Positions 6,505 to 29,784 of a stretch of 31,431 nucleotides of DNA are shown here, piece after piece. Under the pieces are notes generated by a model that made no database searches, was not told the origin of the DNA, and worked only from the letters and a program-made list of their open reading frames with translations. The DNA lies in IMG/VR virus record IMGVR_UViG_3300048790_000015, positions 1-31,431 of that record; one strand, given 5' to 3'. Positions within the stretch are counted from its first letter, which is position 1. The number at the start of each line of letters is the position of its first letter. This DNA is from a virus. A program made the translations under genes and the position numbers.

Positions 6505-6857
6505 GCTTACCCACAGACGATGCGGCGCGTAAGGCGCTGCCGATATTCGATGGCGTCCTGATGTACTTCCCCGACGCGCTGCTCGCGGTAGCCGCGGTCT
6601 CGAAGGCCGGAAACGACCAGCACAATCCAGGCCAACCGCTGCACTGGGCGCGCGGCAAGTCGATGGATCAGATGAACACCGCTACGCGGCACATGATGGA
6701 TCACGGGATGGGGGCCGTGAAGGATACGGACGGCACCTACCACTTGGCGAAGGCGGCGTGGCGGGTGCTAGCGCAGCTGCAATTGGTGATTGAGGGGGAG
6801 CGGGCCGCCAAGGTGGGGGTTGGCCTTGGGGTGACGAAGTTCTCGGAACCGCAGTGA
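6501..6857 (+). CDS. DUF5664 / dATP-dGTP diphosphohydrolase-type protein
   Basis: This 118-residue protein matches the family through RKALPIFDGVLMYFPDALLAVAAVS, then GNDQHNPGQPLHW, then RHMMDHG and AWRVLAQLQLVIE. The family (PF18909) is named after MazG-like members that hydrolyse dGTP or dATP in phages with altered adenine. The family is broad, however, and many carriers have no such modification. The helical HD/MazG-like arrangement with several His and Glu residues suits a metal-dependent pyrophosphohydrolase. It starts within the previous gene (ATGA) and its TGA overlaps the next GTG start (GTGA). It probably adjusts the dNTP pool for the polymerase; the actual substrate is unknown. Confidence 0.85.
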   Translation: MSLPTDDAARKALPIFDGVLMYFPDALLAVAAVSKAGNDQHNPGQPLHWARGKSMDQMNTATRHMMDHGMGAVKDTDGTYHLAKAAWRVLAQLQLVIEGERAAKVGVGLGVTKFSEPQ

Positions 6858-7342
6858 CAACTATAGCGTACAGAGGGGGGATTCTCGCGGCGGACTCGCG
6901 CGAGACGTGGGACGGGGAGGCGGGGGGCACCAGCATCGCGCAATGCACGAAGTTGTACCGTAAGAGGATCGGGAAGCGGGAAGTGATTCTAGGGACAGCG
7001 GGCGCGTCCTACTCGGGGATGGTGTTTGTGGACTGGTTCGGAAGCACCTTGGCTCCTCCAGACTCTCTTACCCTGATGACCGCGGATGAAGACTTCGATG
7101 TCGTGATACTGGATCGCGGCAAGGTCTACACGACTAACCATATGTGCCGCCCCATCGAGATCACGATGCCGTTCTTCGCGGTCGGCTCGGGGCGCAAGGC
7201 GGCGCTCGGGGCGATGTACTGCGGACGCACGGCAAAAGGGGCGGTCGAGGTCGCTTGCCTCGTTGACCCCTTTACCGCCCCACCCATCTACACGATGGCG
7301 ATGCCAGGCTACGTTAAACCTGGTAAACGAACGAAAAGTTGA
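6854..7342 (+). CDS. HslV/proteasome-beta-like Ntn-hydrolase
   Basis: This 162-residue protein begins MTTIAYRGGILAADS, the usual opening of the phage HslV-like family. Removal of Met1 would expose Thr2 as the nucleophile. D14 (in LAADS) and K33 (in QCTKLYR) lie where the Ntn-hydrolase Asp and Lys are expected, and GTAGASYSG follows. Length and glycine pattern agree with a single proteasome-type domain. The GTG start overlaps the previous stop as GTGA. No HslU-type ATPase is seen in the window, so it may act alone or with a host unfoldase. It is the last gene of the plus-strand unit and its 3' end overlaps the tailspike gene on the other strand by 29 bases. Confidence 0.85.
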   Translation: MTTIAYRGGILAADSRETWDGEAGGTSIAQCTKLYRKRIGKREVILGTAGASYSGMVFVDWFGSTLAPPDSLTLMTADEDFDVVILDRGKVYTTNHMCRPIEITMPFFAVGSGRKAALGAMYCGRTAKGAVEVACLVDPFTAPPIYTMAMPGYVKPGKRTKS

Positions 7343-9177: not shown

Positions 9178-12100
9178 TTATTCCTGCTGTTTGTTAGTCA
9201 AGTTCGGATCTAAGTTCGCTAGCTGCTCTACCGCCGAACCAGGATGGAGCAGTGTCAGAGGCTCGACGGGCTTACCGCGCGCGACCGTCGTCGGAACACG
9301 TTGCGGCTTCGTCAGGTCAACGATATGGTGCTCCACCGAGCGTTTCAGGATGGCGTTCTCGATGCCGCCCGCAGCCTGACCCACCGCTGCTCCGGCGATA
9401 GCACCCGGTATCTCACCGAGCGCTGCGCCCGCGATAGCCCCGCCGTGCTTGATCGCGCCTATTGTTCCGCGGGCCGCGAGGTTCAAGTGTTGCGCAGCCG
9501 CGCCTGGGTAGCTGCGGTCCATGCGCAGATATGCAGCGGAGTCGTTGTGGACTCCGATCTGCCGGAGTTGTTCCGGTGTGAACACCATCGCGAGTTTCGC
9601 CTGGTTATTCATCAGGTAGTTGTTCGATCCCTTCGCGTCCCACATGCCGTCCGTCTTCAAGCCCGCGGCGCGGTACTCGTTCATGAACTGCGCGCGTATC
9701 TCGTTGAGAGACGCCGTTCCCTGTCTATTCAACAAGGTTGCAGGCCCGTTACCGGGGTCTCCGACCTGAGTCAATACGTTAACTAAGTGCCCAAACTGAT
9801 CTACCGGCAAATGCGTGACGTAGCCTGGAATCTTCTCTAACGGCACGTCCCGGTTGATCCCGAGTCGGTCATCCGGGCTGAGTAGTTTCGATACAGCCTT
9901 CGGTTCATCGAGCATCTTGTTACGCAGGGTGTTGACCAGCCGCGCTTTCGCGTACACATCTTCACCCGCGGCTTTCGCCACGTCGTTGTCGAGACCCTGC
10001 TTCGCTCCGCTCACTAGCCGCCCCGTGCGTGGAGTCCACGCATCCGACAGGAACTGGCGCAACGCCTCCGTTTGCTTCACGGTCGGCGGATTGAAGGTGT
10101 CGTTCGCGCCCTTAAAGCCAAGTGTCTTCATCTTCTCATTGATGCCGTTGAGTAGATGTTCGCCCTCGGTGCTGCTGATGAACTCGGCTTTGTTTTCTTT
10201 CAGGTAGTTCTGGAATTCGTTCAACGCCTGGATGGGGGTTGTTCCGAGCCGCTGATTCGCCGTTTCGTAGTTGCTCTGAATCGCATCATCGAGATGCTGG
10301 TGGTAGCCGTCTATCGGGGCAGTGATGGTGCTACCGCGGCGGTACAGGTCCCCGTTCTCCATACCATCAGAGCCGCCGCTCATCGCCACCAGGTTATTCG
10401 CGCCTTCTTTCAACGCGGCACGCTCGCCCCCGATGACTCCGGACATCCGCCGCCCTTGCGGATCATCCACGCGCGAGGTCTGGAAGTCGGTACCGGCCCG
10501 CTTCGTGTCTCCGGTGATAGCGCTTTGACGCGTCTCTTTCAAGGTACCGAGCGCTCGCAGAGTAGACTCACGCTGTATCTGTTCTTGCGGCGAGACTTCA
10601 CCACTCGCGGAGCCCTCGTCCGCGGGCTTCTTGAACGACACCATGTTCGACAGGTCCGGAGGCCCCGAGACCCAGTCGGCCGGTGTCTTCGTCGGGCCTT
10701 GCGGCGTAGATGCGGCGAACGCGGAACCCTTCGGTACACCGCCTGATGCGGGCTCGAAACCACCACCCTCATCCTTCCAGGGTTCGCCTGGCATGATCCC
10801 CGGCTTCTGATCGGCGTAGATCGTGTTGCGGGCGCTTGCGTGACGGTTGAACTCGCCATTCGGCCCGAAGTTCACCCATGCGTTCTGCCCTAGCGTTTCG
10901 CTCGCGAGCGCAGGCTTGGCGGCATCGGAGTACATTGCATTATGCAGACGCCAAGCGTTGTACTCACCATCCGCGCGGAACCCGTTCCCTTCCGCCGCGT
11001 GACCGAAGTAGTCGTGTACGATGCGGAAGATGTCGTTGTTCGTTGCCGGTTTTCCGTCGATCATCTCACCGGAGGGTTGGAGCATCGGGTGGTCGCTCTT
11101 GACCCCCGCAGCCGTAGCCGGGGGTTGGGGGTCGCTGGTAGGCCCGAACCCCGCGTCAGTCGGGTAGACCCACATATGATTGTTGTTGCGGATGTCTTCT
11201 ACCGCGAGCCGCGGGGACGACTCGTACGGGTCCGCTTGGCTGGGCTTGATGAAGTTCACCTTCAAGCCCGCGGCCTTGATGGCTTGGTACTGCGCCATCG
11301 TCTCTTTGTTTAGCGCATCATAGGATGCTTGCACACCGGGGAGCGTCGGGTCCGGCACGGTGCGGTCGTACGCGTCCGCGATCTTCGCCATTTTCTCCGG
11401 CACCACGGCGCGGAAGTCAGTCGGCGGGTTGTACGGTAGGCCGGAGCCAGCCATGTAGTTGCGCGCGACCTGGCGCACAGCCTCAGACGGCCCCGGCGTG
11501 ACGGTGCCGTAGTGGGGGATGTTAACCGGGGTCTGCGGCAAGCCCTCTAGCGGCTTCGGTGCAGGGGCCGGTTGCGTGATGTAGTGCTGACCGGCAGCAT
11601 CCTGGGTGAAACCCGGCTGCGCTTGCGCGGTCTCCGGGGAGACGCTAGTCCACTTCCCTAGCTGCTCGGTATGGCCGTCGTCGTACTGATAGGCGGCATT
11701 GCGGTCCGAATCGACGTGCAGGACCGATTTCTGCTCGTGCTGGGCGGCGAACGCGTTGACCTGGGCCTTGGCCCCGTCCGTCGGGGTCTGCACCGCGTAG
11801 GACGGCTCTGCGGTGCCCTCATAGGCTCCGGAGGTCGGTTGGAACGGTAGGCCGGACGCCTTAAGCTGGTTGCCGAGTTGCTGCGTGTGGGCGGCGTTCT
11901 CCTCCGGCGTACGCTCCGGCCGCTCGGCGGACAGGACCGCGAACGGCTGGCCGGTGGGGCTGTGGATGTCCACCGGGCCGGAGGGTTGGTGGACAACCGG
12001 CGCGGCGGGCGGCGCGGCGGGCGGCGGGGCTCCGGCCGCAGGAGGCGTCGCTGGAGCGGCGTTCGGGTCGGGGGTAGGCTTGGTAGCAGCCGCTTCCTTA

Positions 12101-12777
12101 GCGGCGCGTGCTGCGGCTATGCCTTCGGGGGTGTAGCCTCCGGTCGGGTTGGTGGGCGGGGAGGCTACGCTCTTCGGCGTCAAGGTGGTGGTAGAGCGCA
12201 GGCCGAGGTTGCCTGCGACGTGACCGGCTAGGACCCCTACGGCGGCCTGCGCCAGCGGGCTACCACCGAGGTCGGATGCCCCCTGCTGCGCGACGCCGGA
12301 TGCGGCACCGGCCACGCCCGCGCGCACCGCATTCGCAGGACCGCCTATGATGCCGGGGGCGACCCCCTCGCCTGCGGCGTGGAGGTACTTGTCGAAGGTG
12401 GTCCCTTCCTGGGCATCGACGAGGTCGGAGCGACCGACGTTGCGAGCTTGCTGTTTGATCCAGTCAGAGCTAAAAACATCGTTCTTGTAGTTGTCTTGGT
12501 CTTCCGGTTGCAGCGCTTCGGGGATCGGGTTGCCGGTCAGCTCGTGATAGGTGACTCCCATCGCGGCCTTGCCGAGTTCCTTGATGTTGCGCCCGGTATC
12601 GACCACGGACCCGGCGAGGTCCGCGACACCGGAGTTGAAGCCGCTCGTAGCGGCTTGCACGCCGTCCGCGAAGGTCTGCTGCGGGGCAGCCGGGGGCGCG
12701 TCGAACTGATCGAACGGATTAGCGCCCGCGGCCGGAGCCGCAGGGGCGTCGAACTGGTCGAACGGATTACCGGCCAT
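9178..12777 (-). CDS. Large DNA-ejection (internal virion) protein with embedded enzyme-like domain
   Basis: This 1199-residue protein has a position and composition that match the largest P22-type ejection protein (gp16-like). The N-terminus carries two copies of NPFDQFDAP (residues 4-12 and 20-28), a motif I know from phage internal virion proteins. About residues 215-270 are Ala/Pro-rich. Residues about 440-690 form a distinct conserved-looking domain: DPTLPGVQASYDAL, EDIRNNNHMWVYPTD, HDYFGH (588-593), GFRADGEYNAWRLHNAMYS, then ETLGQNAWVNFGPNGEFNR and YADQKPGIMP. The His/Asp/Glu density suggests a metal or catalytic centre. Near the C-terminus a Gly/Ala-rich hydrophobic run could insert in membrane. 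Proteins of this class are injected ahead of the genome. The ATG (12775-12777) overlaps the stop of the upstream gene. Confidence 0.82.
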   Translation of the reverse strand: MAGNPFDQFDAPAAPAAGANPFDQFDAPPAAPQQTFADGVQAATSGFNSGVADLAGSVVDTGRNIKELGKAAMGVTYHELTGNPIPEALQPEDQDNYKNDVFSSDWIKQQARNVGRSDLVDAQEGTTFDKYLHAAGEGVAPGIIGGPANAVRAGVAGAASGVAQQGASDLGGSPLAQAAVGVLAGHVAGNLGLRSTTTLTPKSVASPPTNPTGGYTPEGIAAARAAKEAAATKPTPDPNAAPATPPAAGAPPPAAPPAAPVVHQPSGPVDIHSPTGQPFAVLSAERPERTPEENAAHTQQLGNQLKASGLPFQPTSGAYEGTAEPSYAVQTPTDGAKAQVNAFAAQHEQKSVLHVDSDRNAAYQYDDGHTEQLGKWTSVSPETAQAQPGFTQDAAGQHYITQPAPAPKPLEGLPQTPVNIPHYGTVTPGPSEAVRQVARNYMAGSGLPYNPPTDFRAVVPEKMAKIADAYDRTVPDPTLPGVQASYDALNKETMAQYQAIKAAGLKVNFIKPSQADPYESSPRLAVEDIRNNNHMWVYPTDAGFGPTSDPQPPATAAGVKSDHPMLQPSGEMIDGKPATNNDIFRIVHDYFGHAAEGNGFRADGEYNAWRLHNAMYSDAAKPALASETLGQNAWVNFGPNGEFNRHASARNTIYADQKPGIMPGEPWKDEGGGFEPASGGVPKGSAFAASTPQGPTKTPADWVSGPPDLSNMVSFKKPADEGSASGEVSPQEQIQRESTLRALGTLKETRQSAITGDTKRAGTDFQTSRVDDPQGRRMSGVIGGERAALKEGANNLVAMSGGSDGMENGDLYRRGSTITAPIDGYHQHLDDAIQSNYETANQRLGTTPIQALNEFQNYLKENKAEFISSTEGEHLLNGINEKMKTLGFKGANDTFNPPTVKQTEALRQFLSDAWTPRTGRLVSGAKQGLDNDVAKAAGEDVYAKARLVNTLRNKMLDEPKAVSKLLSPDDRLGINRDVPLEKIPGYVTHLPVDQFGHLVNVLTQVGDPGNGPATLLNRQGTASLNEIRAQFMNEYRAAGLKTDGMWDAKGSNNYLMNNQAKLAMVFTPEQLRQIGVHNDSAAYLRMDRSYPGAAAQHLNLAARGTIGAIKHGGAIAGAALGEIPGAIAGAAVGQAAGGIENAILKRSVEHHIVDLTKPQRVPTTVARGKPVEPLTLLHPGSAVEQLANLDPNLTNKQQE

Positions 12778-21385: not shown

Positions 21386-22669
21386 TTACGACGGCAACTC
21401 GATCAGCTTCGTACCCAGTTCCGGATACGCAACCACCGCACCGACAATGCTGTCCAGGCGAGCCGGGAGCAAGTCGTTGTTCGGGTCCCATTGCTGGGCG
21501 AACCGAATGTTGTAACCCTCAAAGCTCTCCGCAGCCGTCATTTTCACGAGCGGCGACAGGTCAAGCATGGGCGGGTTGGCAAACACGACTGCATCGCGAT
21601 ACCAGCCGAGCGACTGCTTGATGAGCTGACCAGACACGGCATTGATGCCCGCGCCCGTCCCCTGACCGAACACCTGAATCGCAGCGCCGGTCGCGGGCAC
21701 CGAGTCTACGTTCTGGTATGCACCACCCGTGATGATAGCCGGGGAGATGTTCAGCGCAATGGCACCCGAGGTGTCGCTGATGGTCGTGTTGACCACGAAC
21801 TGCTTCAAGCGGCCTAGCGAGGACTTCGACTCCGGATCGACATCGTTGACGCCCGTGATCGTAATCACGTCGCCCGCGTTGACGGTCGTAGCGCCCGAAC
21901 TCCAACCGTTCGTGTTCAACGTCTGCGAGGACGCGAACGCGTTACCGGCACCGGAGTTGCTCTGGCCCGCACCGTTCACGACCGGGGTGGACCCAGTCAC
22001 GACACCGATGGTGTGCGTCGGCATCTTGGTGTTGCGGAAGGCGACGAACCCTGCGGCCTTGTCGGCAATGACGCCGTCGAGCCACTGGTCCGAAACCGTC
22101 GCTTCGGGGTTGAACAATCCCTTGTTGTCGAGGATGAAGTACTGCGACGTTTGCGGGGTTGCCGTGAAGGTGCGGCGGTCATCTTCCGGAGCCAATGCTT
22201 CCGTCAAGAATCGCTCGCACTGGAGCAACTGCGCATAGGTTGCGGTCGTGTTGTACGCGCCAACGAACTTCGGGATGGTTGCCATCGCCGTAGTCGTGGT
22301 GAATGTCTCGAGACCCGAGGACAGTTTCGCCATCGCGGGTTCCAACACTTGCTCTTCGAAGTTGTTGAGCAACATCGCGCGCTCGACCGACGTGAAGTTC
22401 ACATCGACGCCGAACTGGTTGCTCACACTCAACTGAGCGTAACGCTGCACCGACGCCTGAGCCGACATGGTCGGACCCGTGCGCAAGGTGTACTGGAACG
22501 GCAGACGGATGCTCAGGACTTGACCCAAGATCACACCGTCAATCGGACCAGGCAGCAAGCTCTGATAGTCACGGTTCGTTCGACCCGTGAAGTTTGACTT
22601 AGCGTGCAACAGGACAAGCGCCTTGCGCGCGACCCATTGAGCAGTCAGTAAACTATTACCTACAGCCAT
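21386..22669 (-). CDS. Major capsid (coat) protein, P22 gp5-like
   Basis: This 427-residue protein is close to the P22 coat length of 430. It follows the scaffold gene and has an HK97-type order. The N-terminal part includes TGRTNRDYQSLLPGPIDG and IRLPFQYTLRTGP, then QFGVDVNFTSVERAMLLNNFEEQVLEPAMAKL. A central stretch (TTVNAGDVITITGVNDVDPESK, LGRLKQFVV) matches the inserted telokin-like I-domain that P22-type coats carry for folding and stability. The C-terminus reads AVVAYPELGTKLIELPS. The ATG is preceded by an AAGG site at wide spacing, with the 16-bp element (22688-22703) just upstream. Two GroES-like genes in the same unit may aid folding of this protein. Confidence 0.88.
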   Translation of the reverse strand: MAVGNSLLTAQWVARKALVLLHAKSNFTGRTNRDYQSLLPGPIDGVILGQVLSIRLPFQYTLRTGPTMSAQASVQRYAQLSVSNQFGVDVNFTSVERAMLLNNFEEQVLEPAMAKLSSGLETFTTTTAMATIPKFVGAYNTTATYAQLLQCERFLTEALAPEDDRRTFTATPQTSQYFILDNKGLFNPEATVSDQWLDGVIADKAAGFVAFRNTKMPTHTIGVVTGSTPVVNGAGQSNSGAGNAFASSQTLNTNGWSSGATTVNAGDVITITGVNDVDPESKSSLGRLKQFVVNTTISDTSGAIALNISPAIITGGAYQNVDSVPATGAAIQVFGQGTGAGINAVSGQLIKQSLGWYRDAVVFANPPMLDLSPLVKMTAAESFEGYNIRFAQQWDPNNDLLPARLDSIVGAVVAYPELGTKLIELPS

Positions 22670-26249: not shown

Positions 26250-27773
26250 TTAACCGCTCCAAAATGGTTGCGGTCTCCAATCGAACCATCGCTTTCCGTC
26301 CGGCCGGTCCGTGGGCTCGATCTTAGCCCGAGCTAGCCCTGATACAACCGCGTAACGCAAGGCGTCGAGCGCGTGGTCGTTAGTCTTGACGATGTTGCCG
26401 TTCCTATCGCGCCGGTAGGTCGCATACTCGCGCAGAAGATTCTGGCAAGTGCTGAAAATCCGTAACCGGCCTTGGCTGAGTAGCTCCCACACGGCAAAAA
26501 TGCCGGATTCGCGAGCGTTTTCCGCTTTCTCTACATCGAGCCCCAGGTCGAGGTACATATCGAGCAGACGTTGGCCGTCTGTCTGCATTCGGCCGCGTGC
26601 GGCGGGGTCTATAACGCCGGGTTGCCACTTTCCGCGGTTGTTAATCGCGGCCGCATGAACCGACGGTTCAACTTTTCCGCGGTAGTACTCGTCAACGACG
26701 TAAACTGTACCGGTATCTGAGTCGTGCGCGAGCCATACGGTTGCAGTGCAGTTCCAACCAACGTCCAAGCCGTAGCATCGGCGGTAGTGCGCCGGTATCT
26801 GGAACGGCTGTATGATAATTTCTGACTGCGGCACCTGATAAATGGCTCCGGACCCCAACATCGGGATACCGCGAGTACGGGCGTCGCGTTGCCAGGGAGC
26901 ATAAGACGCCATCAAGGCGGCTTTTTCTAGCGGGTCAAGGTGAGGGACATCGTCCCAGCCAGCCTGCACCGCGAATTTCGTTTGTACCGGAGGCTTTCCT
27001 TCGTCCGTATCGAGCGCCGGACGCATTCCGGGCAGGAATTGAAGGATAAGCTCGGTCAGACCCTCCATCGGGGTCGTCGTGACGTAGATGATGCCGTGCG
27101 TCGTCGCGGTACGAGTCAAGCACTCGGAGTAAATGCTCTCGTCGGGCTCTTCGTCAAGCCATATTGCGTGGCAACTGGAGCCTTCGTAGGCGTCTCGGCC
27201 TTGATCGTACGACTTCAACTGCAAGGACGAAACGCCGCCAGACACGTGTTTGACGTAGATCGTCTCGACCGCGTCCGCGATGCCGTGCTTGGTCGTAGTC
27301 CGCACTATCAGGTCGCGTGGAATCATGCCCGTACCGAACGACGCGTCGCTGCCAGGCTTGCCGAGCATCAACTGCTGGATGATGTCGCGTACGGTTTTGG
27401 AAGACTTACCGGCCGCCCAGCAATCGGTAGGGTCGTCAAAGCGGCGTCCAGTCCACCACTCCGGATATTTCCCGGTTAGGTGGCACGTCATTTCGTAGCC
27501 GCCCGTTACTGTCTTACCGACTCGGTTCGCGGCGATGAACGCTCGCTCTTTCCAGACGTTTCCGGCCGCCATGAACTCAACGTGCCGCGGGTACGCGGCG
27601 CGCGTCTCCGGCGTGCTATAGTAGGTCGCTATTAGATTTTGCGACTGGCGGCGCGCTTTCTCTTCGAGCGTCTGTAAGAGCTGCAACTTTTCCGCTCGCG
27701 TCAGTGAATTCAGCATCGATGACGGGTCCGTTATGCCGGAGGAGGTAACGGAGTCGATTATCGAGCTGCTCAT
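26250..27773 (-). CDS. Terminase large subunit
   Basis: This 507-residue protein is the packaging motor ATPase and nuclease. Walker A is ANRVGKT (residues 82-88) and Walker B is HAIWLDEEP (D207, E208, E209), with a coupling-type VTTTPMEG near 231-238. The nuclease domain shows D337 (YGLDVGW), D389 (PGVIDP) and D466-H467 with D470 (NDHALDALRYA). Residues 21-70 hold the RAEKLQLLQTLEEKARR helix and YPRHVEFMA, which are usual for terminases of this group, so translation must begin ahead of them. ATG 27773 has AGGGA upstream; ATG 27716 is a weaker choice. The first 52 codons overlap the end of the small terminase gene by 158 bases in another frame. Confidence 0.94.
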   Translation of the reverse strand: MSSSIIDSVTSSGITDPSSMLNSLTRAEKLQLLQTLEEKARRQSQNLIATYYSTPETRAAYPRHVEFMAAGNVWKERAFIAANRVGKTVTGGYEMTCHLTGKYPEWWTGRRFDDPTDCWAAGKSSKTVRDIIQQLMLGKPGSDASFGTGMIPRDLIVRTTTKHGIADAVETIYVKHVSGGVSSLQLKSYDQGRDAYEGSSCHAIWLDEEPDESIYSECLTRTATTHGIIYVTTTPMEGLTELILQFLPGMRPALDTDEGKPPVQTKFAVQAGWDDVPHLDPLEKAALMASYAPWQRDARTRGIPMLGSGAIYQVPQSEIIIQPFQIPAHYRRCYGLDVGWNCTATVWLAHDSDTGTVYVVDEYYRGKVEPSVHAAAINNRGKWQPGVIDPAARGRMQTDGQRLLDMYLDLGLDVEKAENARESGIFAVWELLSQGRLRIFSTCQNLLREYATYRRDRNGNIVKTNDHALDALRYAVVSGLARAKIEPTDRPDGKRWFDWRPQPFWSG

Positions 27774-28647
27774 CAGACATTTTCCCTGTGACGTTCATAT
27801 CTACGTTCAGCCGTTCGGAGAATTTATCCGGGCGCTCGGCTTTCAGAATCAACGTCAAAAGTTTATCGTTCCCGGCGAGCGCTAACTGCTTCGCACGTTC
27901 CTCAAAAGCGAGATTTGCTATCGGTTCGGCCTCTTCGCAACGTGAGCGAAAGGCGGGATTGCGGGCAAATTCGGCTTGTATCTCCGACATCGTCACGCGG
28001 ATTGCGTCTCGCGCGGTAGCGACATCGCCGCTGTCGATCCATACCGTGATGTAGCGGGCGCGCTTATCCTCGTTCCACTCGAATGCGGTCGTATCAGGCA
28101 CTGTAGGGCGGATGTTCAACCGCGACTCCAGATCGTTCGTGGCGGCGCGGAATACCGCGGAGGTGCTAAGGCGCATGTGAATCTGCGCTGCGCTGCTGTT
28201 CACTAAATGCGCGGCGCGCTCTAAGTCCTTCACCGCAGCGTACTCCACCAGGAACCGCTTCTCAAACGCGTCGGGCTCAATCGGCCGGAGAGACGGAGCG
28301 TTCGGTACGACCGACTTCTCGTACTTCGCTGGGCGTTCTACTGCCATGCCGCTAGCGCGGCCTGCAATGGGTTGCTTGCCCCGCGAAAGGCGGTGGCAGT
28401 CTACGCACTGGTTCACGTTCGAGACGTAGCGCGGAGCCTGGTGGCCGAACCGGCACGCGCGGCCATCGTAGAATAGGGAGAACCCGCGTTGCCGTGCTTC
28501 ATCGAGCGGGACTAGCCGCGTCGGCATGAAGTTGTACATATCCGGCATACCGTCTTTAAGCGGTGCAATAGCCGCTAGTTCACCGTCTGTAAGCGGTGAA
28601 ATGTCGCGGCTCGGCGCTTCAACCTTCTTCGGCCGACCCGCTGGCAT
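27616..28647 (-). CDS. Small terminase-like protein with N-terminal zinc-binding motif
   Basis: This 343-residue protein lies directly before the large terminase. About residues 55-90 contain a C-H-C-C-H cluster (C65, H69, C81, C84, H85; DGRACRFGHQAPRYVSN then CVDCH), a small zinc-binding module seen in several phage proteins. The rest is helical, with two helix-turn-helix-like regions (VKDLERAAHLVNSSAAQIHMRL; ATARDAIRVTMSEIQAEF) and LALAGNDKLLTLILKAERPDKF, which resembles TerS families. It would recognise phage DNA and load the motor. The ATG overlaps the GroES-like stop (TAATG). The last 52 or so codons also encode the start of the large terminase in another frame. The length is greater than for typical TerS proteins. 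Confidence 0.78.
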   Translation of the reverse strand: MPAGRPKKVEAPSRDISPLTDGELAAIAPLKDGMPDMYNFMPTRLVPLDEARQRGFSLFYDGRACRFGHQAPRYVSNVNQCVDCHRLSRGKQPIAGRASGMAVERPAKYEKSVVPNAPSLRPIEPDAFEKRFLVEYAAVKDLERAAHLVNSSAAQIHMRLSTSAVFRAATNDLESRLNIRPTVPDTTAFEWNEDKRARYITVWIDSGDVATARDAIRVTMSEIQAEFARNPAFRSRCEEAEPIANLAFEERAKQLALAGNDKLLTLILKAERPDKFSERLNVDMNVTGKMSDEQLDNRLRYLLRHNGPVIDAEFTDASGKVAALTDARRESAPPVAKSNSDLL

Positions 28648-29075
28648 TACGACTGCATCCAGTCTTCCGCGCCTGACATGAAGTTACCGTTCCGGTCGTA
28701 GCCCGCGGACTGCTGCCACAGGAGCGCATTGCTCTTCGAGGCGGTCGGGTCTATGCCGTAGCAGGACCTACGCCACACCATCAGGTATGACTTGCCTTCG
28801 AAGTCAAACTCTACCACGCCGCGCGGACTGAACTCCACCACGTCGCCGACCTTGACATCCATCGGCGTGAACTTCCCGTTCTCAGCCCCATCTTCGAACC
28901 AAGTCGGCGGTCGTCCTGGCATTCCGTCAAAGCGCGTCATCTTCTTGCGGCGGCGGCCGGGTCCGGCCGCTATGACGGTACCCTTTTGGAGTACTACACC
29001 AACCACCGCGAGGATGGGGTGCTCGTACTCCATACGCTTGACAATCAAGCGATCAGCGAGTGGGCGCAGGGTCAT
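28647..29075 (-). CDS. GroES-like co-chaperonin with insertion and C-terminal extension
   Basis: This 142-residue protein has the N-terminal GroES pattern MTLRPLADRLIVKRMEYE, then VVLQKGTVIAAGPG, then MDVKVGDVVEFSPRGVVEFDFEGKSY and MVWRRSCYGI, which follow the GroES strands in order. Between GPG and the VKVGD strand there are about 30 extra residues, basic then Pro/Gly-rich (RRRKKMTRFDGMPGRPP), and the C-terminus continues about 35 residues past the usual end. GroES caps the GroEL chamber; T4-type phages use their own version for coat folding. The ATG overlaps the stop of the other GroES-like gene (ATGA). The mobile loop, if present, is the EYEHPILAVVG region. Confidence 0.82.
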   Translation of the reverse strand: MTLRPLADRLIVKRMEYEHPILAVVGVVLQKGTVIAAGPGRRRKKMTRFDGMPGRPPTWFEDGAENGKFTPMDVKVGDVVEFSPRGVVEFDFEGKSYLMVWRRSCYGIDPTASKSNALLWQQSAGYDRNGNFMSGAEDWMQS

Positions 29076-29347
29076 GCCGCGTCCTCAAAAACACCCAGCA
29101 CGTCTTTCTCTTCGCTCATGATGCGGATCGCCGCGCCATCGAAAACAGAGTCCATACCGCTAGCTGCGCCGAACTGGACCTTGTCCCCGACTTTCAGCTC
29201 GGTGCAGTCAGGCCCACACGCTAACACAGAGCCCGTAAGCGAGCGCTGCCAATCGGGCAGGATAATCGCGCCGACCTGGCGCGTAGATGCGGGCAAGACC
29301 GCAACCAAGTCGCCAAGCAACTGCATCGTAAATTCTTTCAATGGCAT
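29072..29347 (-). CDS. GroES-like co-chaperonin, compact form
   Basis: This 91-residue protein is the normal GroES size. The pattern runs MQLLGDLVAVLPASTRQVGAIILP (first strand, then a mobile-loop-like segment with the hydrophobic triad IIL), GSVLACGPDCTELKVGDKVQFG (roof and VKxGD strand), and IRIMSEEKDVLGVFED (closing strand). ATG 29347 is listed; ATG 29326 (residue 8) begins nearer the conserved part and is an alternative. It is directly followed by a second, longer GroES-like gene. Likely partner: host GroEL, and likely client the coat or another virion protein. No GroEL-like gene occurs in the window. Confidence 0.83.
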   Translation of the reverse strand: MPLKEFTMQLLGDLVAVLPASTRQVGAIILPDWQRSLTGSVLACGPDCTELKVGDKVQFGAASGMDSVFDGAAIRIMSEEKDVLGVFEDAA

Positions 29348-29379: not shown

Positions 29380-29784
29380 TTAAAAACTTCCGCTGGGGGT
29401 CTGGACTGCGCACAGCTCGATGATCGCTACCGTAACGATACTGCTCGGATTCCCCGTAACGCTATCCGTGACAGTAGCCGTCACTGATAACTGGCAGAGT
29501 TGCGATCCCTGGTACTGGTACGTCATGACCATAGACGAACCGGGAATCTGCAACGTCTGCGACGGCGTGGCCGGACCCGGAGGGATCGGGAGCGTCGTGA
29601 GCGGAATCATGTTGACATCGTTCGTGATGTTGTCTAGCTGGTACGCGGCCGCGGTCGGTACACATTCGGTCATTGTGTGATCGAGGTACGTCAAGTCAAC
29701 GAATACGTCGGCTCCCGCATACGAGCGGAAGTCGATGTAGGGCAGGATCGGTTGACCGGCGAGACCGCGATTGTTGATCGTCAT
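29380..29784 (-). CDS. Beta-rich 134-residue hypothetical structural protein
   Basis: This protein opens MTINNRGLAGQPILPYIDFRS and includes a hydrophobic/Thr/Pro-rich central part (MIPLTTLPIPPGPATPSQTL) and strands such as GSSMVMTYQYQGSQLCQLSVTATVTDSVT. This gives an immunoglobulin-like or other beta-sandwich look. The ATG immediately follows the TAA of the 23-codon gene upstream. It is probably a minor virion or assembly protein because it is transcribed with the head genes, but I recognise no family. Confidence 0.65.
   Translation of the reverse strand: MTINNRGLAGQPILPYIDFRSYAGADVFVDLTYLDHTMTECVPTAAAYQLDNITNDVNMIPLTTLPIPPGPATPSQTLQIPGSSMVMTYQYQGSQLCQLSVTATVTDSVTGNPSSIVTVAIIELCAVQTPSGSF

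What the first reader, a model, noticed from the sequence alone, without database searches (positions are those of the whole stretch)
28647..29347. Two adjacent, dissimilar GroES-like co-chaperonin genes in one phage
Two consecutive genes both follow the GroES strand order. One is compact (91 residues) with an IIL-type mobile loop. The other (142 residues) has an insertion of about 30 residues and a C-terminal extension. They are coupled by ATGA and lie in the late unit just before the small terminase. Known phage co-chaperonins such as T4 gp31 are single genes that alter GroEL use for coat folding. A pair could form a mixed heptamer, two caps for different clients, or one cap plus a protein with a new task.
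Basis: partly seen in the sequence, partly recalled or inferred. Interest (0 to 1): 0.72.

Follow-up and report, generated by a model that had tools for sequence, protein, structure and literature searches.

The report
Paired phage co-chaperonins, likely one ring
A family of environmental viruses of bacteria carries two different relatives of the protein-folding lid GroES side by side, always together and once fused into one protein, so they probably build one mixed lid on the host's GroEL folding machine, which no phage is known to do.

Summary
Both ORFs (P2, 91 aa, 29072-29347; P1, 142 aa, 28647-29075; minus strand, ATGA overlap) exceed Pfam's Cpn10 cut-off and their predicted structures match GroES. 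The pair is conserved. Independent scans from each side found 93 other IMG/VR contigs plus one MAG contig. P2 and P1 occur together in 84 of the 85 contigs with enough sequence to tell; in the exception an endonuclease VII gene sits where P2 should be. The usual junction is a 4-base overlap. In one lineage (two samples) the genes are fused in frame, with a diverged linker and both halves under purifying selection. None of 38 pair-bearing records searched encodes GroEL. P1 and P2 are separate, old paralogues. P1 has an enlarged basic roof, a shortened mobile loop and a nearly invariant C-terminal tail (LLWQQSAGYDRxGNFMSGxEDW) that is predicted disordered. P2 keeps a canonical-type GroEL-binding loop (I-x-L-P-D-W-Q-R). 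Best reading: a two-subunit co-chaperonin, most likely a mixed ring, working with host GroEL to fold virion proteins (probably the P22-type coat), like chloroplast Cpn10/Cpn20. Shown: homology, linkage, fusion, constraint. Inferred: ring composition, GroEL use, client. New variant of a known kind.

The parts
29072..29347 (-). P2: compact Cpn10/GroES-type subunit, 91 aa; roofless in this phage (9 residues between the conserved Gly and the VGD motif, versus 18 in GroES)
   Evidence: Pfam Cpn10 26.4 bits; AF2 pLDDT 84.8; Foldseek to GroES chains, prob 1.00; profile A4 to Thermus Cpn10, E=3e-15; loop and roof lengths
29243..29260 (-). P2 mobile-loop motif LPDWQR (residues 30-35), after the first residues of the hydrophobic tripeptide I-I-L
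   Evidence: P and W in 34/34, L 33/34, D 33/34, Q 33/34, R 31/34 members
29072..29075 (-). ATGA overlap: stop of P2 and start of P1
   Evidence: same -3 junction in 45 of 67 pairs
28647..29075 (-). P1: divergent Cpn10/GroES-type subunit with enlarged roof and C-terminal tail, 142 aa
   Evidence: Pfam Cpn10 35.5 bits in two stretches; AF2 pLDDT 75.7, barrel mostly 80-89; Foldseek to GroES, prob 1.00
28983..29036 (-). P1 shortened mobile-loop segment (residues 14-31), YxHPxL...G-[IV]-x-[ILVM]-x-K
   Evidence: 24 residues from the conserved Asp to the conserved Gly in 37/38 members, versus 30 in Salmonella GroES; residue counts
28860..28961 (-). P1 enlarged roof (residues 39-72) with basic cluster GRRxRRK and FEDGxExG motif
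   Evidence: 34-57 residues across the family, mean net charge +3.7; residue counts
28650..28745 (-). P1 C-terminal extension (residues 111-142)
   Evidence: beyond the end of the GroES barrel; pLDDT 38-55
28659..28724 (-). near-invariant tail motif LLWQQSAGYDRNGNFMSGAEDW (residues 118-139)
   Evidence: mean commonest-residue fraction 0.88 over 38 members, versus 0.78 for the second half of the barrel
27616..28647 (-). putative small terminase (context)
   Evidence: phrog_4044, E=0.001, weak
26250..27773 (-). large terminase (context)
   Evidence: PF03237 6.7e-24, PF17289 2.5e-9
21386..22669 (-). P22-type major coat protein, 427 aa: the most likely client (inference)
   Evidence: PF11651 2e-24; phrog_283 3e-47

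Best explanation
P2 and P1 are the two subunits of one phage co-chaperonin that replaces or competes with the host's GroES. Late in infection they are made together (overlapping genes) and assemble into a mixed Cpn10 ring that caps the host's GroEL. P2 supplies canonical-type GroEL-binding loops (I-x-L-P-D-W-Q-R). P1, with its short loop, enlarged basic roof and conserved flexible tail, reshapes the dome or holds the client, most likely the P22-type coat protein. Shown: homology, predicted fold, near-constant linkage, overlap, natural fusion, purifying selection, no phage GroEL found. Inferred: mixed ring, use of host GroEL, late timing, identity of the client.
For: Cpn10 profile and fold matches for both. 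The pair is together in 84 of 85 contigs where it could be judged, from scans started independently from P1 and from P2: 67 of the 68 judgeable contigs of the first set and all 17 contigs found only by the second. 4-base overlap in 45 of 67 junctions. In-frame fusions of 264 and 259 aa in L053 and L055: halves 96-99% identical with dN/dS 0.36 and 0.06, linker only 58% identical with a 5-residue in-frame length change. Low dN/dS for the separate genes of the window and L047 (P1 0.23, P2 0.07). Where a gene sits between them in L070, and where P2 should be in L092, it is an endonuclease VII type gene, a likely later insertion. No Cpn60 in 25 + 13 pair-bearing records, so a host GroEL is needed. 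22 other phage records with GroES have one Cpn10 each. Precedent: chloroplast Cpn10(1) is active only in hetero-oligomers with the tandem-domain Cpn20 (PMC4242682).
Against: No direct evidence for a mixed ring: no multimer model, no biochemistry. Fusion and gene neighbourhood show joint action, not necessarily the same ring. P1's loop segment is 6 residues shorter than that of GroES and lacks the P-D motif, so P1 may not bind GroEL. Related podoviruses manage with one GroES (ct2G2228, DSL-LC05) or none (EBPR podovirus 1, Rhodoferax P26218), so P1 is not generally needed for a P22-type coat. All members are metagenomic; hosts are unknown and most records are fragments.
Confidence: 0.57

Rival explanations
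1. P2 is the GroEL cap. P1 is a GroES-fold protein turned to another task, such as a client adaptor, a packaging or assembly factor, or a regulator of P2, acting through its tail and basic roof.
For: P1 has the shorter loop without P-D, a roof 2-3 times longer than usual and rich in Arg/Lys, and a tail more conserved than the second half of its barrel yet predicted disordered, as expected for a motif that binds a fixed partner. It lies directly upstream of the terminase genes. One related phage has only a P2-like gene (DSL-LC05).
Against: P1 keeps the GroES barrel, both terminal strands used for ring contacts in GroES, and a G-[IV]-x-[ILVM] loop motif. It is fused to P2 in one lineage and no P2 of this family was seen without it.
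Confidence: 0.23
2. Two separate homo-heptameric caps, made together, for different clients or stages.
For: Both keep the complete Cpn10 barrel. P1 and P2 form separate, fully supported clades with long stems, as expected for specialised paralogues. Phage CBB is reported to have two separate GroES-like ORFs (PMC5259590).
Against: Near-constant adjacency, overlap and fusion argue for joint assembly. A fused chain could not easily build two separate rings.
Confidence: 0.15
3. A redundant or recent duplicate, or a chance resemblance of one ORF to GroES.
For: P1 of most relatives does not reach the Pfam threshold by itself.
Against: P1 and P2 are each one clade with 100% support; purifying selection on both; the window's P1 passes the Pfam cut-off and its model matches GroES.
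Confidence: 0.03

Closest known systems
Chloroplast co-chaperonins Cpn10/Cpn20 (Arabidopsis Cpn10(1) with Cpn20; Chlamydomonas Cpn11/20/23, chains of PDB 7ekq)
   Same: Several different Cpn10 domains, some joined head to tail in one chain, working as mixed rings; profile A4 and both models match the 7ekq chains; some subunits are active only in hetero-oligomers (PMC4242682).
   Different: Here encoded by phages, usually as two overlapping genes; P1 has an enlarged roof and a conserved tail; used with a host's GroEL rather than Cpn60 alpha/beta; mixed ring not shown.
T4 gp31 (phage co-chaperonin)
   Same: Phage-encoded GroES fold without a phage GroEL; P2 of the window lacks the roof, as gp31 does (PMC6318259); 1g31 is among the structural matches of both models.
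   Different: gp31 is one gene forming homo-heptamers with a longer mobile loop (22 versus 16 residues); here both loop segments are 3-6 residues shorter than in GroES, there are two subunits, and P1 has a larger roof.
Single GroES genes of podoviruses (Phage DSL-LC05; ct2G2228) and phrog_3188
   Same: GroES-like gene in the portal-terminase-capsid region of related podoviruses; both proteins match phrog_3188.
   Different: One gene only, no P1-type partner.
Jumbo phage CBB, two GroES-like ORFs (CBB_131, CBB_268)
   Same: Two GroES-like genes in one phage (PMC5259590).
   Different: Not adjacent by number, in a 356 kb myovirus; not retrieved by P1 or P2 at protein level.

Membership tests
Cpn10 / GroES co-chaperonin (PF00166) | sequence profile above the curated cut-off | tested here: met
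   P1 35.5 and P2 26.4 bits against 21.1
Cpn10 / GroES co-chaperonin (PF00166) | GroES beta-barrel fold | tested here: met
   AF2 models of both; only GroES/Cpn10 chains at prob 1.00; TM normalised by target up to 0.80 for P2 and 0.84 for P1; the whole-query TM for P1 is about 0.5 because the roof and tail are extra
Cpn10 / GroES co-chaperonin (PF00166) | mobile loop with a hydrophobic GroEL-binding tripeptide | tested here: met
   P2: [IV]-x-[LM] followed by P in 34/34. For P1 the result is ambiguous: G-[IV]-x-[ILMV] present, but the loop is 6 residues shorter and has no P-D
Cpn10 / GroES co-chaperonin (PF00166) | seven-membered ring that caps ATP-bound GroEL and supports folding | not testable with these tools
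   no multimer modelling or biochemistry available
T4 gp31-type phage co-chaperonin | no roof | tested here: inconclusive
   true for P2 of the window and 4 other members of 34; not for most P2s; P1 has an enlarged roof
T4 gp31-type phage co-chaperonin | mobile loop longer than in GroES | tested here: not met
   Asp-to-Gly distance 24-27 versus 30 in Salmonella GroES
Cpn20-type tandem co-chaperonin | two Cpn10 domains in one chain | tested here: not met
   separate genes in the window; met in relatives L053 and L055
Hetero-oligomeric co-chaperonin (chloroplast type) | different Cpn10 subunits in one ring | not testable with these tools
   supported indirectly by linkage and fusion

The most novel reading that the evidence does not exclude
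An obligate two-component phage co-chaperonin, evolved independently of the chloroplast one: a mixed P2/P1 ring on host GroEL, in which P1 subunits are weak or non-binding members whose basic roof and invariant tail line or seal the dome and give the cage specificity for the phage coat protein.
Probability: 0.35. Interest if true: 0.8.

Novelty: new variant of a known kind. Interest (0 to 1): 0.62.

Why it matters
If right, this is a bacterial-virus counterpart of the chloroplast's mixed co-chaperonins and a natural experiment on how unlike subunits change a GroEL cage. It makes questions testable that are hard in plastids: how many functional loops a ring needs, what the roof does, and whether a co-chaperonin can carry client specificity. 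The split genes, the natural fusion, and the roofed and roofless P2 variants form a ready series. It also shows that the GroES genes of phages include a paired lineage for which no report was found in the open-access library searched.

Tried and rejected
Recent duplication: rejected, since P1 and P2 are each a fully supported clade on long stems; whether they share one ancestor within phages is unresolved. Chance ORFs: rejected by profiles, fold and dN/dS. A phage-encoded GroEL partner: none found. A third Cpn10 in the records: none found. P2 without P1 in this family: none among the P2 scan's loci. Forcing P1 and P2 rows onto the fusion for a joint fold: MAFFT laid both on the P1 half, so the two available folds went to the window's own proteins. 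A profile scan with A2 failed for lack of conserved stretches and was repeated with A6. Host assignment: the only genome-contig hit is a contig in a Solirubrobacterales bog MAG (L125), quite possibly a mis-binned phage contig; not relied on. Literature: ten full-text searches found no phage GroES pair of this kind; only CBB's two separate ORFs. My expectation that P22-type coat folding uses GroEL rests on general knowledge; I read no paper for it.

Full report
CHECK OF THE OBSERVATION. Both exceed Pfam's gathering score for Cpn10 (P1 35.5 bits, P2 26.4, cut-off 21.1); PHROGs and NCBIfam also name GroES. A six-frame search of the whole 31,431-base virus record finds these two places only. With family alignments, the P2 profile reaches Thermus Cpn10 at 3e-15 and the P1 profile at 1.2e-5. 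AlphaFold gives a confident barrel for P2 (mean pLDDT 84.8) and for the P1 core (blocks mostly 80-89), with a low-confidence P1 tail (38-55). Foldseek's only matches at probability 1.00 are GroES/Cpn10 chains for both.

CONSERVATION OF THE PAIR. A scan of IMG/VR with the P1 family (patterns from its C-terminal tail) gave 76 contigs. Counting the window and one MAG contig, 67 of these 78 also show a P2-type gene in front of P1. Ten of the other eleven are cut off by the contig end, and in the eleventh (L092) a recombination endonuclease VII gene (PF02945, 2.2e-15) sits where P2 should be, near the contig start. A second scan, started from P2's mobile loop, found 17 further contigs; all have P1 behind P2. 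Together that is 84 of 85 judgeable contigs. At 45 of 67 junctions the start codon of P1 lies 3 bases before the last base of P2 (ATGA or GTGA). Some junctions are interrupted; in L070, which was inspected, the gene between is of the same endonuclease type as in L092. Control: 22 other phage records carrying a GroES have exactly one Cpn10 each. Named podoviruses related by terminase or coat have one (DSL-LC05, ct2G2228) or none (EBPR podovirus 1, Rhodoferax P26218, CV-1-33, ctNMl277).

FUSION. In L053 (264 aa) and L055 (259 aa), from different samples, P2 and P1 are one ORF. Between them the P2 half is 96% and the P1 half 99% identical (dN/dS 0.36 and 0.06, on few changes), while the linker is 58% identical and 5 residues different in length, in frame. 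A sequencing error would not keep frame through a diverging linker. This is the strongest evidence for joint action.

ANATOMY. P2 keeps the hydrophobic loop tripeptide and then PDWQR (P and W in all 34 members). In most members P2 has a roof of normal length (18 residues between the conserved Gly and the VGD motif, as in Salmonella GroES), but in the window and four others it is roofless (9-10), as reported for gp31 (PMC6318259). P1 has a loop segment of 24 residues against 30 in GroES, always an enlarged roof (34-57 residues for the part that is 13 in GroES) with a GRRxRRK cluster, and a tail whose 22-residue motif is more conserved than the second half of the barrel. In the window, P1 shares only one base with the next gene (TAATG), so the tail is not conserved because of an overlapping reading frame. 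A conserved but predicted-disordered tail suggests a binding motif for a fixed partner (inference). P1 and P2 are each one clade with 100% support, on long stems.

CONTEXT. The phage is a podovirus-like virus with a P22-type coat (PF11651, 2e-24), scaffold, portal, head-closure protein and family A DNA polymerase. The pair lies in the order P2, P1, putative TerS, TerL, portal, scaffold, coat. No Cpn60 was found in 25 + 13 pair-bearing records, though most are fragments. The cap most likely serves a host GroEL.

HOW IT MOST LIKELY WORKS. The overlap and the fusion imply that P2 and P1 are needed together in similar amounts. The economical model is a mixed ring in which P2 supplies most of the GroEL contacts and P1 changes the dome. 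In plants, Cpn10(1) is inactive alone but active with the tandem-domain Cpn20, and the authors argue that four intact subunits in the ring could be enough for GroEL binding (PMC4242682), so a ring with weakly binding members is plausible. The coat protein is the likely client by analogy with T4 gp23 and gp31 (PMC6318259) and by gene position; this is inference. Rivals are one cap plus a second task for P1 (0.23), two caps (0.15) and redundancy (0.03).

NOVELTY. Membership in Cpn10 is met by profile and fold for both proteins; ring and GroEL function could not be tested. It is not gp31-like in loop length, and not Cpn20 in the window, although fused relatives have Cpn20's architecture. Two GroES-like ORFs in one phage have been reported (CBB, PMC5259590), so the count alone is not new. 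A conserved, coupled and sometimes fused pair of specialised subunits was not found in the library searched. Verdict: new variant of a known kind.

LIMITS. All members are metagenomic; hosts are unknown; the contigs include near-duplicates; the literature searched is open-access PMC only; ring composition, GroEL use and client remain untested.

Noticed in passing
L065 9405-10319 and 10306-11082; L001 4912-5772 and 5765-6520: In many relatives the large terminase is split into two overlapping genes, an ATPase ORF (PF03237) and a nuclease ORF (PF17289), sometimes with an HNH-like endonuclease gene between them (L006 2541-3059; L111 10264-10764); in the window TerL is one 507-aa ORF.
   Followed up: partly
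window 9178-12777 (-): A 1199-aa protein in the structural region holds an S-adenosylmethionine lyase domain (PF23780, E=1.7e-16, residues 281-401): possibly an anti-restriction activity carried by a virion or ejected protein.
   Followed up: no
window 6854-7342 (+): HslV-family peptidase homologue (phrog_1040, 1.8e-31) at the end of the early gene block.
   Followed up: no
L070 7633-7956; L092 67-432: Endonuclease VII type genes sit between P2 and P1 (L070) or where P2 should be (L092, PF02945 2.2e-15), suggesting homing-type insertion at this junction.
   Followed up: partly
window 29380-29784 (-): A 134-aa gene of unknown family just upstream of P2 (motif GNRxLxGxPILPY) is also upstream of P2 in the relatives read out; no Pfam match.
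   Followed up: no
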